Shown piece by piece: positions 6,118 to 59,923 of a DNA stretch of 64,000 bases. Positions within the stretch are counted from its first letter, which is position 1. Each line of letters begins with the position of its first letter. Position numbers and translations under genes: made by a program. Source of the DNA: Chitinophagaceae bacterium (GTDB lineage Bacteria > Bacteroidota > Bacteroidia > Chitinophagales > Chitinophagaceae). The stretch is taken from positions 248,001 through 312,000 of the forward strand of contig JACSRW010000032.1 in the NCBI GenBank assembly GCA_014879565.1, written 5' to 3'. The notes under the pieces were generated by a model. The model saw nothing but the letters and a program-made list of their open reading frames with translations. It did not search any database and had not been told where the DNA came from.

Positions 6118-6157
6118 CAAACAGCAAACAGCAAACAGCAAACAAAAAACAACAAAC
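6118..6157. repeat. Heptamer tandem array (CAAACAG)n before clpB
   Basis: Three exact CAAACAG units at 6118-6138 are followed by degenerate continuations (CAAACAA, AAAACAA, CAAAC) to 6157, ten bases before the clpB ATG. It would lie in the clpB 5' leader. It is one of several 7-nt period arrays in this window, each with a different word. Confidence 0.85.
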
Positions 6158-44774: not shown

Positions 44775-44864
44775 GTCAGGAGCGGGTAACTGTTTTACAA
44801 AAGTCCGGGGATAGGCGACAAATTCCTAATTTTAATCAACGATTGTAAACTCTTTTCACCCAAA

Positions 44865-44904
44865 CCCCTCAACCTCTCAACGCCTCAACCCCTCAACTTT
44901 TCAG
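44865..44904. repeat. Octamer tandem array before hmgA
   Basis: Five consecutive 8-nt units CCCCTCAA, CCTCTCAA, CGCCTCAA, CCCCTCAA, CTTTTCAG end two bases before the hmgA ATG. This is the only array here with an 8-nt rather than 7-nt period. Confidence 0.85.
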
Positions 44905-52943: not shown

Positions 52944-53016
52944 GAAAGAAGAAACAAGAAACAAGAACCGAAGAAACAAGAACCAAAGAACCAAGAGCCG
53001 AAGAACCAAAGACCAG
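52944..53016. repeat. Degenerate CAAGAAC/CGAAGAAC heptamer array between ATPase and permease genes
   Basis: Purine-rich array of 7- to 8-nt units (GAAACAA, GAAACAA, GAACCGAA, GAAACAA, GAACCAAA, GAACCAA, GAGCCGAA, GAACCAAA, GACC) running about 73 bases between the second ATPase stop and the first permease start. Confidence 0.8.
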
Positions 53017-56056: not shown

Positions 56057-56062
56057 GGCCCT

Positions 56063-56146
56063 TAGCTGTCAGCTACAGGCTGTGGCTTATAAATAAAACA
56101 GAAACGTTGACGCTAAAGGCCGAAAGCCGATAGCCAAAAGCTAAAA
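56063..56146. repeat. Facing heptamer arrays (AGCTNNN / GCYNAAA) in the infA-rpmJ spacer
   Basis: Right array: five exact 7-nt steps GCTAAAG, GCCGAAA, GCCGATA, GCCAAAA, GCTAAAA (56112-56146). Left array: AGCTGTC, AGCTACA, GGCTGTG, GCTTATA (56064-56091), the same core in the opposite orientation. The RNA could fold one array onto the other. Confidence 0.85.
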
Positions 56147-56149
56147 AAA

Positions 56150-56266
56150 ATGAAAGTAAGAGCATCTATCAAAAAACGCAGTGCCGACTGCAAGATTGTT
56201 CGCCGCAAAGGCAAGCTGTATGTGATCAACAAAAAGAATCCGCGCTTCAAGCAGCGTCAGGGTTAA
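56150..56266 (+). CDS. rpmJ: 50S ribosomal protein L36, zinc-free type
   Basis: 38 residues ([19 protein letters not shown] ... NPRFKQRQG), too short to appear in most ORF lists. Three of the four usual zinc ligands are replaced: position 11 Ser, position 27 Asn and position 32 Phe; only Cys14 remains. This is the zinc-independent form of L36. It sits between infA and rpsM as in most bacteria. The start is preceded by the heptamer array whose last unit runs up to it. Confidence 0.97.
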
Positions 56267-56308
56267 GTCGGTCCGAAGCCGGAATCTTTAGTCGGGAGTC
56301 CGGGTCTT
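56267..56308. repeat. Degenerate heptamer array in the rpmJ-rpsM spacer
   Basis: GTCGGTC, CGAAGCC, GGAATCT, TTAGTCG, GGAGTCC, GGGTCTT read at a 7-nt step with a GTC/GTCC theme. It is weaker than the neighbouring arrays. Confidence 0.45.
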
Positions 56309-56347
56309 CCAATAAACAATTTAAAAAAAGAAAAACAAACATAGACT

Positions 56348-56728
56348 ATGGCACGTATTGCCGGTGTGGATTTACCCAAAAACAAAAGAGGCGAGATTGG
56401 TCTTACCTATATATATGGTATCGGCCCCTCCACCGCCAAGTATATCCTGGACAAGAACAGTATTGACCGTAATAAGAAGGTGCATGAGTGGAACGATGAG
56501 GAACTCAACCTGATCCGGAACACGATCACAGAAGAAATGAAAGTGGAAGGTCAGCTGCGTTCCGAAGTGCAGATGAGCATCAAGCGTCTGCTGGATATTG
56601 CCTGCTACCGGGGACTCCGTCACCGTAAAGGTCTGCCTGTACGCGGTCAGCGTACCAAAACTAACAGCCGTACCCGTAAAGGCAAGCGTAAAACAGTTGC
56701 CGGTAAGAAGAAGGCTCCGAAGAAATAA
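56348..56728 (+). CDS. rpsM: 30S ribosomal protein S13
   Basis: 126 residues. The start [26 protein letters not shown] and the block [35 protein letters not shown] are diagnostic. S13 sits in the head of the 30S subunit and contacts S19 and the 50S subunit. A 182-base spacer with inverted repeats separates it from rpsK, unusually long for this operon. Confidence 0.98.
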
Positions 56729-56805
56729 CAGCAACGGACTGAGCAGAACGGTTTCCGGGCCCCTGGCTGGTTACCCGCAACGCGCAGTCCGGTACTTTTA
56801 TAAAG

Positions 56806-56882
56806 ACTTACAAACCCTGAATCAATACCGGATCGCTTCGTAAGTCAGCAGGAGGGTTGATTCAATTCCGCCGGTGCGGAAT
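56806..56882. repeat. Interleaved inverted repeats and a hairpin in the rpsM-rpsK spacer
   Basis: GACTTAC (56806-56812) has its exact complement GTAAGTC (56840-56846), and GAATCAA (56820-56826) has TTGATTC (56857-56863), in A-B...A'-B' order, so they cannot nest in one hairpin. A local hairpin ATTCCGC (56865-56871), loop CGGT, GCGGAAT (56876-56882) follows, ending before an AATTTT tail, a possible attenuator. Confidence 0.6.
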
Positions 56883-56910
56883 AATTTTAAAACAGCAGAT
56901 TACCTCAAAA

Positions 56911-57318
56911 ATGGCAAAAGCACAACAACAGCCCAGCGCCAAAGCTGCGGCCAAAAAAAGAGTGGTAAAAGTGGACGCTTACGGCGATGCCCACATTTCC
57001 GCAACATTCAACAACATCATTATCAGCCTGACCAATAAAACCGGTCAGGTAATTTCCTGGAGCAGCGCCGGTAAAATGGGCTTCCGCGGTTCCAAGAAAA
57101 ACACACCCTATGCCGCCCAGATGGCTGCCAACGATGCCGCTAAAGTGGCTTTTGATGCCGGTCTGAAGCGCGTGGATGTGTATGTGAAAGGTCCCGGTTC
57201 AGGTCGCGAGAGCGCTATCCGCTCCCTCAGCCAGTCCGGTATTGAAATCGTAATGATCAAGGACGTAACACCGCTGCCGCACAACGGCTGCCGTCCTCCC
57301 AAGAAGAGAAGAGTATAA
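56911..57318 (+). CDS. rpsK: 30S ribosomal protein S11
   Basis: 135 residues from ATG 56911 ([21 protein letters not shown]); an upstream frame start in the spacer is rejected. Core motifs: [46 protein letters not shown] and [19 protein letters not shown] at the end. S11 shapes the platform of the 30S subunit next to the mRNA path. Confidence 0.98.
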
Positions 57319-57319
57319 T

Positions 57320-57396
57320 GAAGTACGAAATACGAAGTACGAAGTACGCATCCCAACGGAGCCTCTTTCGTACTCCGTACTTCTTACCTCGTACTT
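57320..57396. repeat. Facing GAAGTAC / TCGTACT heptamer arrays in the rpsK-rpsD spacer
   Basis: Left: GAAGTAC, GAAATAC, GAAGTAC, GAAGTAC (57320-57347). Right: TCGTACT, CCGTACT, TCTTACC, TCGTACT (57368-57395), the reverse complement word. Separated by 20 bases; together they can form a hairpin of about 28 bp in the operon mRNA. Confidence 0.88.
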
Positions 57397-57510
57397 AAAT
57401 ATTTTGAGCCAGACTGGTTTCATTTTTTAAAAGGGCATCCGATTGATTTTTTAAAGCTTTTTACTGATCGTGATGCCGGTTTCTAAAAAAGCTTAAATGA
57501 AAGTAAGACT

Positions 57511-58116
57511 ATGGCAAGGTACAATGGTCCCAAGACCAAAATTTCCCGCATTTTTGGAGAGCCTATCTTAGGCAATGGTAAATGGTTGGGTAAAAACAGT
57601 AATCCTCCCGGCCAGCATGGTGAAAAACGCAAGCGTAAAACCTTAGGGGAATATGCGCTGCAGCTCCGCGAAAAACAAAAAGCCAAGTACACCTATGGGG
57701 TACTGGAAAAGCAATTCCGTAAAACATTTGAGGAAGCCGCCCGCCGTAAGGGGGTAACCGGTGAAAACCTCATCAAGTTACTGGAAGCCCGCCTGGACAA
57801 TACCGTGTTCCGGATGGGTATCGCCCCGAGCCGCCCTGCTGCCCGCCAGCTCGTAAGCCACAAGCACATTGAAGTAAACGGTGAAGTGGTGAATGTGCCT
57901 TCCTTCCAGCTTAAACCCGGTGACGTGGTTACCGTGAAAGACGGCAGTAAGGAGCGTACTTCCATCACCAGCGCGGTTCGTCCCAAGAACCCCAAGTTCA
58001 GCTGGGTAGATTTCAATGAAACCGAGTTTAAAGGAACTTTCATTACGTATCCCGAAAGGGAAAGTGTTCCGGAGAACATCAAGGAACAACTGATCGTCGA
58101 ATTGTACAGCAAGTAA
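57511..58116 (+). CDS. rpsD: 30S ribosomal protein S4
   Basis: 201 residues. Start [19 protein letters not shown]; the S4/Hsp40-like RNA-binding block is [61 protein letters not shown]. No zinc-binding Cys at the N-terminus, so the zinc-free type. S4 starts 16S rRNA folding and in E. coli represses its own operon. The 133-base spacer to rpoA holds two hairpins. Confidence 0.98.
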
Positions 58117-58119
58117 TTT

Positions 58120-58206
58120 ATTTGCGGATGGTTTATCCATCCGCAAATTCACTTTAAAGGCCGCAGGCTTTTAAAGTGGCTGACAAACCGGCAACCCGCA
58201 ACCGCC
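58120..58206. other. Two strong hairpins and a short array in the rpsD-rpoA spacer
   Basis: Hairpin 1: 12-bp exact stem 58120-58131 / 58137-58148, loop TTTAT. Hairpin 2: CACTTTAAA (58150-58158) / TTTAAAGTG (58170-58178). Then heptamers AACCGGC, AACCCGC, AACCGCC (58186-58206). No T-run follows, so processing or attenuation is more likely than full termination; rpoA lies downstream. Confidence 0.7.
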
Positions 58207-58249
58207 TGTATAAACCGGCGGCTAACCATTTAAAATTAAAGCGTAAAAT

Positions 58250-59251
58250 ATGGCTATCCTTAATTTCCAGAAACCTGACAAGATTATACTGCAGAAGGCT
58301 ACGGATTTCGAAGCACAATTTGAGTTTCGTCCCCTCGAGCCCGGCTATGGTGTTACCATTGGTAATGCACTGCGCCGCGTACTGCTGAGTTCACTCGAAG
58401 GCTATGCAATCATCGGCGTGAAAATCGAAGGGGTGGAGCACGAATTTGCAACCATGAAAGGTGTCAGCGAAGACGTGGTGGAAATTTTCCTGAACCTCAA
58501 ACAGGTTCGTTTCAAAAAAATCGTTGACCACGATGTGACCAGCGAAAAGATCATCCTTTCTATAAAGAACCGGACCGAGTTCACTGCCGGTATGATCAGC
58601 GAAGGCACCCAGACATTCCAGGTGATGAACCCGGATCTGCTGATCTGCACTCTGGACTCTTCTGCACGTATGGACGTGGAACTGACTATCGGCAAAGGCC
58701 GTGGGTATGTACCCGCTGAAGAGAACAAACCCAAGGAAGCCCCGATGGGTTATATTCCCATCGATGCCATTTTCACGCCTATCAAGAATGTGAAGTACAG
58801 CGTGGAAAATACCCGTGTGGAACAGCGGACTGACTTTGAAAAACTGATCATGGAAGTTTCCACAGACGGCACCATTCATCCCGAAGAGGCGGTGAAGCAG
58901 GCGTCCCGTATCCTGATTCAGCATCTGATGATCATCACTGACGAAAACATCACTTTTGATAATAAGGAAGAGAAGAAGGAAGACCTGGTGGACGAACAGA
59001 CCCTGCAATTGCGCAAAGTGCTGAAAACACCGCTGGAAGACCTCGATCTTTCTGTAAGGGCTTTCAACTGCCTGAAAGCTGCCAAGATCAACTCCCTGAG
59101 TGAACTGGTGCAGTATGAGCAGGAAGACCTGATGAAGTTCCGCAACTTTGGTCAGAAATCACTTGCCGAAATTGAGCAGGTACTGACTGAGCGGGGGCTT
59201 CATTTCGGAATGGACCTGGTAAAACTGGGTATTGACCTCAGCGAATTCTAA
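58250..59251 (+). CDS. rpoA: DNA-directed RNA polymerase subunit alpha
   Basis: 333 residues. N-terminal domain (FEFRPLEPGYGVTIGNALRRVLLSSLEGYAIIGVKIEGVEHEFATMKGVSEDVVEI) assembles the polymerase; the C-terminal domain (about 260-333: LEDLDLSVRAFNCLKAAKINSLSELVQYEQEDLMKFRNFGQKSLAEIEQVL) contacts promoters and regulators. Both are complete. It follows the usual bacterial order rpsD-rpoA-rplQ. Confidence 0.98.
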   Translation: MAILNFQKPDKIILQKATDFEAQFEFRPLEPGYGVTIGNALRRVLLSSLEGYAIIGVKIEGVEHEFATMKGVSEDVVEIFLNLKQVRFKKIVDHDVTSEKIILSIKNRTEFTAGMISEGTQTFQVMNPDLLICTLDSSARMDVELTIGKGRGYVPAEENKPKEAPMGYIPIDAIFTPIKNVKYSVENTRVEQRTDFEKLIMEVSTDGTIHPEEAVKQASRILIQHLMIITDENITFDNKEEKKEDLVDEQTLQLRKVLKTPLEDLDLSVRAFNCLKAAKINSLSELVQYEQEDLMKFRNFGQKSLAEIEQVLTERGLHFGMDLVKLGIDLSEF

Positions 59252-59270
59252 AAATCGTACAGGTATTTTC

Positions 59271-59305
59271 GCGTAGCTCGTACTGCGTAGTTCATACTTC
59301 GTACT
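59271..59305. repeat. TCGTACT-type heptamer array in the rpoA-rplQ spacer
   Basis: GCGTAGC, TCGTACT, GCGTAGT, TCATACT, TCGTACT at an exact 7-nt step. It shares its word with the right arm in the rpsK-rpsD spacer, 1.9 kb upstream; an isolated TCGTACA lies at 59255. No clear facing array here. Confidence 0.8.
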
Positions 59306-59361
59306 TATTCATCACGTAGGCTGTAATTCCTGACACGGTACAGCCGATAAAAACAAATGTC

Positions 59362-59892: not shown

Positions 59893-59923
59893 AAATGCCT
59901 CCGGAATTCCGGGGGCATTTTTT
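59893..59923 (+). terminator. Terminator of the ribosomal operon
   Basis: AAATGCCTCCGG (59893-59904), loop AATT, CCGGGGGCATTTTTT; ten-base-pair stem with one G-U pair, then a T-run. Confidence 0.85.

What the first reader, a model, noticed from the sequence alone, without database searches (positions are those of the whole stretch)
56057..59361. All six spacers of the ribosomal alpha operon carry heptamer arrays or inverted-repeat structures
Between infA, rpmJ, rpsM, rpsK, rpsD, rpoA and rplQ, spacers of about 80 to 190 bases hold 7-nt period arrays or strong inverted repeats, each with its own word (GCYNAAA, a weak GTCC type, GAAGTAC, AACCSSC, TCGTACT). A compact, strongly conserved operon is an unlikely place for junk to pile up. 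A 7-nt step is not a codon multiple and all lie outside genes. They may set mRNA processing, stability or attenuation between genes that need different output, or be the footprint of an element that targets intergenic DNA. I know no described system that matches.
Basis: partly seen in the sequence, partly recalled or inferred. Interest (0 to 1): 0.75.

Follow-up and report, generated by a model that had tools for sequence, protein, structure and literature searches.

The report
RNA switches and heptamer hairpins
In one bacterial family, gaps between ribosomal-protein genes hold three conserved RNA structures that probably let ribosomal proteins switch off their own genes, with fast-changing hairpins built from 7-letter repeats beside them.

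Summary
The finding is partly real and covers two different things. (1) Heptamer arrays: 4 of 6 spacers have 7-nt arrays beyond shuffles, two do not. GAAGTAC and TCGTACT are one word on opposite strands. Such arrays are frequent in spacers of this genome and nearly absent from sampled coding windows, and frequent in this operon across 80 loci taken as Chitinophagaceae (108 of 423 spacers, 2 when shuffled). They often come as inverted pairs, making hairpins after the upstream stop codon; the place recurs, the word changes. Heptamer repeats, inverted pairs included, are described in Xanthomonas. (2) Nearer the downstream start codon, three spacers hold conserved RNA structures: a hairpin with near-invariant loop before rplQ, a pseudoknot before rpsD, a GGAU/GGAGG internal-loop element before rpsK. 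All three covary and recur in this operon in many, not all, family genomes. No Rfam 15 family reaches its cut-off in the window or 17 related loci. Best reading: new ribosomal-protein leaders (bL17, uS4, perhaps uS11) plus intercistronic hairpins of free sequence. Ligands and regulation are inferred, not shown.

The parts
56057..56149 (+). infA-rpmJ spacer: 7-nt array of GCYNNAA type at 56116-56146; inverted arms GGCCCTTAGC / GCTAAAGGCC (56057-56121)
   Evidence: array 0/1000 shuffles, inverted repeat 11/200, fold z -2.8; AGCTNNN words seen by eye in this spacer in several relatives
56267..56347 (+). rpmJ-rpsM spacer: no supported array or hairpin
   Evidence: 160/1000, inverted repeat 111/200, fold z +0.11
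56805..56882 (+). Element C before rpsK: outer stem 56818-56826 / 56856-56864; conserved GGAT 56830-56833 and GGAGG 56851-56855; pseudoknot GACTTAC 56805-56811 / GTAAGTC 56840-56846; free-sequence hairpin 56865-56871 / 56876-56882
   Evidence: outer-stem covariation 0.703 against 0.260 (sd 0.026) shuffled; R3 match 56817-56867, 59.1 bits (the window copy was in the training set)
56898..56906 (+). GATTACCTC box just upstream of rpsK start
   Evidence: GAHYACCT in 65 of 79 family rpsK upstreams, 0 of 24 outside the family, 5 of 352 own-sample genes (rpsK itself included)
57319..57396 (+). Heptamer-armed hairpin after rpsK stop: GAAGTAC array 57320-57348, arms 57321-57348 / 57369-57396
   Evidence: array 0/1000, inverted repeat 0/200, -30.3 kcal/mol for 57319-57400, z -6.5; not in the terminator-like list
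57434..57494 (+). Element B before rpsD (candidate uS4 leader): P1 57434-57443 / 57467-57477; pseudoknot P2 AAGCTTTTT 57454-57462 / AAAAAGCTT 57486-57494
   Evidence: model R2, built without the window's genus, has its best match at the rpsD upstream site in 14 of 14 genus loci (filters off)
58117..58249 (+). rpsD-rpoA spacer: two compact hairpins (58120-58148, 58150-58178) and a short AACCSSC array 58186-58203; no conserved element recognised
   Evidence: inverted repeat 1/200, fold z -5.67, array 4/1000
59272..59306 (+). TCGTACT array, the same word family as GAAGTAC on the other strand
   Evidence: 0/1000
59311..59356 (+). Element A before rplQ (candidate bL17 leader): 7-bp stem 59319-59325 / 59339-59345, loop ATTCCTGACACGG
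   Evidence: 98.1% of cells paired in 59 sequences, covariation 0.885 against 0.336 (sd 0.022)
59893..59920 (+). Terminator-like hairpin with T tail after rplQ (end of the operon)

Best explanation
Three of the spacers are in two layers. Next to the downstream start codon lies a conserved structured RNA that most likely is an autogenous ribosomal-protein leader: element A (hairpin with loop AUUCCUGACACGG, the loop ending in most loci 22-28 nt before rplQ) bound by bL17; element B (H-type pseudoknot whose P2 pairs off the A-rich stretch 17-25 nt upstream of rpsD in the window) bound by uS4; element C (outer stem, GGAU/GGAGG internal loop closed by a local hairpin or by a pseudoknot with the upstream strand, then a hairpin and a GAYUACCUC box before rpsK) bound by uS11 or another product of the operon. 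Surplus protein would bind its leader and block initiation on the next cistron. Between the upstream stop codon and these elements there is often an intercistronic hairpin of free sequence that parts the cistrons for RNA stability or processing. A 7-nt-step repeat process, common in spacers of this family, often supplies the arms. Shown here: structures by comparison, covariation, position, distribution, array statistics. Inferred: ligands, regulation, the role and origin of the hairpins. The rivals below concern different parts of this and can be true together with the rest.
For: A: 59 sequences, 98.1% of cells paired, covariation 0.885 against 0.336 (sd 0.022) shuffled and at most 0.232 slid; one match per genome in 109 of 396 genomes of the order, all in the window's family; 30 of 30 fetched loci have the match between rpoA and rplQ; rplQ is the last gene before a terminator-like hairpin. 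B: 28 sequences, covariation 0.404 against 0.184 (sd 0.014) shuffled, at most 0.117 slid; P2 arms change in step (AAGCTTTTT/AAAAAGCTT, ACGCTTTT/AAAAGCGT, ATGCTTTT/AAAAGCAT, CCGCTTT/AAAGCGG; GACCTTT and GGCCTTT with their complements); own-pair complement 8.0 against 7.03 (sd 0.12) in 2000 permutations of 80 loci, maximum 7.46 (part of these longest complements are P1); 46 of 298 genomes, all in the family; in 42 of 42 genomes with both A and B hits, A lies 1.4-2.4 kb downstream of B. C: 35 sequences, outer stem 0.703 against 0.260 (sd 0.026); pseudoknot complement own 5.64 against 4.26 (sd 0.17), not reached in 5000 permutations, in the 44 loci without an inner hairpin of 5 bp. Hairpins after stop codons: rpsM, rpsK, rpsD, rpoA mean fold z -2.15 to -2.85, z below -2 in 30/62, 29/52, 34/76 and 32/59, against mean -0.4 and 14/230 for the last 80 nt of rpsK, rpsD and rpoA. 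Arrays.
Against: No expression, binding or RNA-end data. B and C of the window do not fold better than shuffles on their own (z -0.99 and -0.89); their support is comparative, and pseudoknots are outside that energy model. The genome searches are incomplete: one search lists 20 genomes of the same family without an A match, each list 20 (the window's own genome and genus among them), and the lists of misses are capped, so the share of the family that has each element is not known. The searches used strict filters; R2 finds the window's genus only with filters off (E 1.8e-5 to 0.069). Alignment rows were chosen after looking (A 59 of 70, B 28 of the 62 of 79 loci for which a script gave a structure, C 35 of 59). 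In A2 only 2 of 7 P2 pairs have changes on both sides, some rows being misaligned there. C was not found by script in 20 of 79 family loci and 18 of 57 tested loci show neither inner hairpin nor pseudoknot by the rule used; 4 non-family or off-operon places also match R3 near its threshold or off the operon (three other families, plus three matches in G229 and G225 away from A). infA-rpmJ and rpmJ-rpsM show less folding excess (12/58 and 13/76). Where the element pattern was not met, one search left the element inside the folded stretch. Lag-7 matches in the first 200 nt of operon genes are also above shuffles (351 against 225), far less than in spacers (1393 against 315).
Confidence: 0.7

Rival explanations
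1. The conserved elements act without r-protein ligands, for example as attenuators, RNase processing sites or translation-initiation structures that fix the output ratio of the cistrons.
For: No ligand has been tested. C carries a GGAGG and a GAYUACCUC box resembling the 16S 3' end (resemblance recalled, GAUCACCUCC), and Bacteroidia ribosomes hide the anti-Shine-Dalgarno in a bS21/bS18/bS6 pocket (PMC9976891, abstract and passages), so an RNA-only or ribosome-sensing switch is possible.
Against: A near-invariant loop on a freely varying stem is what protein-binding sites look like; one match per genome, between rpoA and rplQ in 30 of 30 loci checked.
Confidence: 0.25
2. The heptamer arrays and their hairpins are neutral: polymerase slippage with a 7-nt step and template switching make them, intergenic DNA tolerates them, and they do nothing. 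(This concerns the arrays only, not elements A, B, C.)
For: Many spacers and nearly no coding windows have them; words change between relatives (by eye); 0 of 32 spacers of seven small-genome relatives have them; PMC4679880 (passages) reports the proposal of Mrazek et al. 2007 that polymerase interaction favours 7-nt units.
Against: Strong folding after four of the six stop codons recurs across genera, also where the hairpin is compact and has no heptamers (for example L031, L083, L107). Array presence alone does not show function.
Confidence: 0.45
3. The hairpins are a mobile repeat family (REP/MITE-like) that targets spacers.
For: Word families are dispersed in the genome; inverted arms.
Against: No shared sequence or fixed ends seen by eye; words differ between related genomes at the same place. 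No transposase and no insertion boundary was searched for.
Confidence: 0.1
4. Everything is an assembly or chance artefact.
For: The window comes from a fragmented genome (44 contigs).
Against: Same kinds of structure in loci of named records such as Chitinophaga pinensis, Sediminibacterium and Segetibacter; shuffles and slides.
Confidence: 0.01

Closest known systems
Ribosomal-protein leaders of Eckert and Weinberg 2020 (PMC7247131; passages seen): S4 leaders of Bacteroidia and Flavobacteria, L17 leader of Actino- and Proteobacteria
   Same: Structured RNA upstream of rpsD (with rpoA, rplQ) or of rplQ alone
   Different: Their Bacteroidia and Flavobacteria S4 motifs are described as hairpins and the word pseudoknot does not occur in the held text; ours is a pseudoknot. 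No Rfam 15 family reached its gathering score in the window or 17 related loci. At high E-values, in 5 loci and a 4.3-kb window stretch, the only r-leader families listed were Alpha_RBS around rpsM and two weak L20_leader matches, none at A, B or C. Their motif alignments were not compared directly.
E. coli alpha-operon S4 pseudoknot (Rfam Alpha_RBS RF00140; mechanism recalled)
   Same: Pseudoknot RNA of the same operon that can trap initiation
   Different: Lies at rpsM; sub-threshold matches here also span the rpsM start (5 of 5 loci scanned, 19.7 to 33.6 bits, and 13.6 in the window; cut-off 38), not element B
Heptameric intergenic repeats of Xanthomonas and Nostoc (PMC4692102, passages)
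   Same: Degenerate 7-nt units, largely intergenic, 70 and 75 inverted pairs in two Xanthomonas genomes
   Different: One G-rich word family there; many words here, with turnover at one place in an essential operon
TAACTGA repeats of Beggiatoaceae, Cyanobacteria and a few Bacteroidetes (PMC4679880, abstract and passages)
   Same: 7-nt intergenic arrays, some before ribosomal-protein genes
   Different: Single word; in the main genome 169 direct sets and one indirect repeat, mostly close to start codons
REP/BIME palindromes of enterobacteria (recalled; PMC3733652 seen only in a search listing)
   Same: Intergenic palindromes thought to stabilise upstream mRNA
   Different: REPs have a conserved sequence; these do not

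Membership tests
Autogenous ribosomal-protein leader | Conserved structure with covariation directly upstream of an r-protein gene | tested here: met
Autogenous ribosomal-protein leader | Specific binding of the encoded protein and repression | not testable with these tools
   no experiment
Autogenous ribosomal-protein leader | Resemblance to the protein's rRNA site (not obligatory) | tested here: inconclusive
   23S of two relatives holds AGTTCCTGAAACCGT / AGTACCTGAAACCGT, 3 or 4 mismatches in 15 to the A loop; weak, and B and C were not tested against rRNA
Rfam S4 (Bacteroidia, Flavobacteria) and L17 leader families | Covariance-model score above gathering | tested here: not met
   0 matches of any family; none of these families listed at E up to 10 and 5
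Alpha_RBS (RF00140) | Covariance-model match at the element | tested here: not met
   matches span the rpsM start, below cut-off
Heptanucleotide intergenic simple-sequence repeats | 7-nt tandem units in excess in spacers, not in genes | tested here: met
REP/MITE mobile palindromes | Conserved palindrome sequence or insertion boundaries | tested here: inconclusive
   no shared sequence at orthologous places by eye; boundaries and transposases not examined
Intrinsic terminator | Hairpin followed by a T run | tested here: not met

The most novel reading that the evidence does not exclude
A 7-nt repeat generator serves as raw material for regulatory hairpins: selection keeps 'a hairpin after this stop codon' while its sequence is replaced wholesale, and each hairpin insulates a separate protein-sensing leader, so that one essential operon carries at least three feedback switches. 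Element C would sense the ribosome platform through its GGAGG and a mimic of the 16S 3' end before rpsK (uS11).
Probability: 0.2. Interest if true: 0.8.

Novelty: new variant of a known kind. Interest (0 to 1): 0.6.

Why it matters
It gives three concrete RNA-protein pairs to test in a phylum whose ribosomes fail to recognise Shine-Dalgarno sequences (PMC9976891, abstract), so that feedback on ribosomal-protein genes must work otherwise. Element A is a single small hairpin with a near-invariant loop, a convenient bL17 target. The hairpins pose a testable question: can selection keep a structure while a repeat process keeps replacing its sequence?

Tried and rejected
Tandem-repeat and Rfam scans of the window alone did not reveal the conserved elements; comparison with relatives did. 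rRNA mimicry by element A: only a weak resemblance, not used as support. Pairing of GGAGG with the ACCUC box: 3-4 bp by eye, too weak to claim. Uniqueness of the alpha operon for arrays: not supported. Many of the strong inverted repeats of the genome sample look like compact terminator hairpins rather than heptamer-armed ones (read by eye), so the heptamer link was tested on arms (15 arms, lag 7 0.412 against 0.266, z 5.2) and on spacers of relatives (inverted-partner score 9.36 own, 6.74 in other spacers, 7.13 for the same strand; 32 of 108 beat all 15 others, 76 did not). Literature: ten paper runs, one failed (19); nine ran over the held open-access library only; no listed title or abstract opening names a leader before rplQ, rpsD or rpsK in Chitinophagaceae. 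PMC7247131, PMC4679880, PMC4692102, PMC9976891 and PMC6429828 were read as passages (PMC4679880 also abstract and outline). Protein structure prediction was not used.

Dropped rows: L045-L048 (weak partial matches) were not used. A1 left out 11 of 70 loci (a run of N, loop-length variants, near duplicates). The A-loop pattern was written after seeing the sequences; among 72 family loci with rplQ it missed L073, L092 and L097, and L092 shows a one-base loop variant; loci L115-L128 gave no match and were not printed. Several of the 62 structures are spurious by eye. Alignment A4 (30 loci) was inspected by eye only. In one search the spacer was cut at a fixed 95 nt before rpsD, which trims some hairpins; stretches under 22 nt were left out. 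Family versus non-family was set by locus number (L049-L114, rpsD identity 71-93%; L115-L128 59-69%), not by a tree. At the array threshold the rpsK-rpsD spacers of L021, L022 and L029 are not called as arrays; their hairpin words are read by eye. A draft of this report said that small-genome relatives lack element C; recount shows 5 of 7, and it is mended here. Confidence was lowered from 0.72 to 0.70 because the listed family genomes without a match are now told.


Full report
What was checked. The window lies in an unnamed 3.43-Mb genome whose nearest named relatives by rpsD are Chitinophagaceae records. Four spacers carry 7-nt arrays beyond shuffles, two do not, and rpmJ-rpsM has neither array nor hairpin. 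GAAGTAC and TCGTACT are the same word on opposite strands.

Heptamers are a trait of many spacers. In 213 spacers from about 12% of the genome, 4-mer matches at lags 7 and 8 are a little over twice the shuffled level (z 14.0 and 14.6; multiples such as 14 and 24 are raised too). Arrays scoring 12 or more occur in 12 (7-nt) and 6 (8-nt) of 213 spacers and in 0 of 1065 coding windows; at 10 or more, 3 of 1065 coding windows have one. In the same operon of 80 loci taken as Chitinophagaceae, 423 spacers show 1393 lag-7 matches against 315 shuffled (z 42) and 986 against 283 at lag 14; the first 200 nt of operon genes show 351 against 225 and 136 against 210. 108 of 423 spacers, in 48 of 80 loci, have an array against 2 shuffled; the reverse complement of the array scores higher within its own spacer (9.36) than in other spacers (6.74), and 32 of 108 beat all 15 controls. 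Within the window's genus 18 of 35 operon spacers of six large genomes have an array, 0 of 32 of seven small ones. Word families are dispersed over the genome.

The place stays, the word goes. After rpsK the window has GAAGTAC arms; same-genus relatives have other words there (AGAAGTC, GAAGTCA and GAGTTAY types, by eye; only the last passes the array threshold), and others have compact hairpins without heptamers. After rpsM, rpsK, rpsD and rpoA about half of the loci fold with z below -2 (30/62, 29/52, 34/76, 32/59); after infA and rpmJ 12/58 and 13/76; gene ends 14/230. The window's rpsK hairpin is very stable (z -6.5) and not terminator-like. Whether this is selection or a hot spot cannot be told from sequence alone.

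Three conserved RNA elements. Aligning relatives exposed blocks downstream of the arrays that keep their place. Element A before rplQ: 7-bp stem with free sequence and near-invariant loop; 59 sequences, 98.1% of cells paired, six of seven pairs with changes on both sides, covariation 0.885 against 0.336. By pattern it is in 70 loci, 69 of them among 72 family loci that have rplQ. Model R1 matches 109 of 396 genomes of the order, all of the window's family, one per genome; 20 listed family genomes have no match and the list of misses is capped. In 30 of 30 fetched loci the match lies between rpoA and rplQ. A weaker match outside the family lies at the same place in L037 (E 0.0014).

Element B before rpsD: P1 of about 11 bp and a crossing helix P2 whose 3' arm is the A-rich stretch near the start codon. 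P1 and P2 together: 0.404 against 0.184. P2 arms change together between genera. Model R2, made without the window's genus, has its best match at the rpsD upstream site in 14 of 14 genus loci with filters off (the window's copy at E 0.0011, the weakest at 0.069). Under strict filters it matches 46 of 298 genomes, all in the family, and misses the window's genus. In 42 of 42 genomes with both hits A lies 1.4-2.4 kb downstream of B; 4 more genomes have B without an A match. It had no match at E up to 1 in 15 loci outside the family.

Element C before rpsK: outer stem (0.703 against 0.260), conserved GGAU and GGAGG, closed by a local hairpin (13 loci) or a pseudoknot with the upstream strand (26 loci), with 18 of 57 showing neither by the rule used; the pseudoknot pairing is locus-specific (5.64 against 4.26, sd 0.17). 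A script found C in 59 of 79 family loci. R3 matches 32 of 298 genomes at E 0.01, 29 of them in the family; 23 of 26 R3 matches from genomes with an A hit lie 2.0-3.1 kb before A. GAHYACCT stands before rpsK in 65 of 79 family loci, 0 of 24 others, and 5 of 352 genes of the own sample, rpsK included. Of seven small-genome relatives (2.1 Mb or less), five lack C (L024, L026, L027, L028, L032); all five keep A and B and all but L032 keep the box.

Reading. The arrangement is that of autogenous leaders: A before rplQ alone points to bL17; B before rpsD, rpoA and rplQ points to uS4, a known regulator of this operon elsewhere (PMC7247131, passages); C is less sure. P2 of B would pair off the A-rich initiation stretch, an entrapment like that of E. 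coli uS4 (recalled). The hairpins between stop codon and leader probably part the cistrons for RNA stability or processing. Binding, repression and processing are all inferred.

Novelty. New r-leader families are a known kind of thing; nothing at gathering score in Rfam 15, nothing at A, B or C in the r-leader families listed at high E-values, and nothing in the passages read matches these three. Heptamer repeats, even paired ones, are known (PMC4692102, PMC4679880). New here, as far as these searches go, are the three elements in one operon and the turnover of hairpin words at kept places.

Noticed in passing
window 56284-56380; L112 2397-2503, L077 2105-2225, L063 2395-2457, L067 2402-2471, L049 2329-2393: Sub-threshold Alpha_RBS matches span the rpsM start in 5 of 5 loci scanned (19.7 to 33.6 bits, cut-off 38) and in the window (13.6); shared rpsM coding sequence may explain part of the score.
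   Followed up: partly
window 44863-44897 and whole genome: GTTGAGNN octamer arrays are a large dispersed word family: 80+60 triplet matches in the genome, 0 for the reversed pattern.
   Followed up: partly
window 52949-53009 and 6118-6157: Further arrays (AAGAACC type with mixed 7/8-nt steps; CAAACAG) in other spacers of the window.
   Followed up: no
L021, L022 spacers infA-rpmJ and rpsM-rpsK: Another intergenic repeat type (TTCGCC..GCTCAGGGTGACAA-like) occupies slots where the window has heptamers or other hairpins (by eye).
   Followed up: no
L024, L026-L028, L032: Five of seven small-genome relatives of the same genus lack element C; none of the seven has an array in 32 spacers; L031 and L033 keep C.
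   Followed up: partly
L183, 23S rRNA: AGTTCCTGAAACCGT in 23S resembles the element A loop (3 mismatches in 15).
   Followed up: partly
L115: Record titled Phycisphaerales, yet its rpsD is 69% identical to this Bacteroidota protein; the label may be wrong.
   Followed up: no
L023, L025 rpoA-rplQ: Inverted octamer arrays (GTGAAAAT-type and its complement) flank element A on both sides.
   Followed up: no
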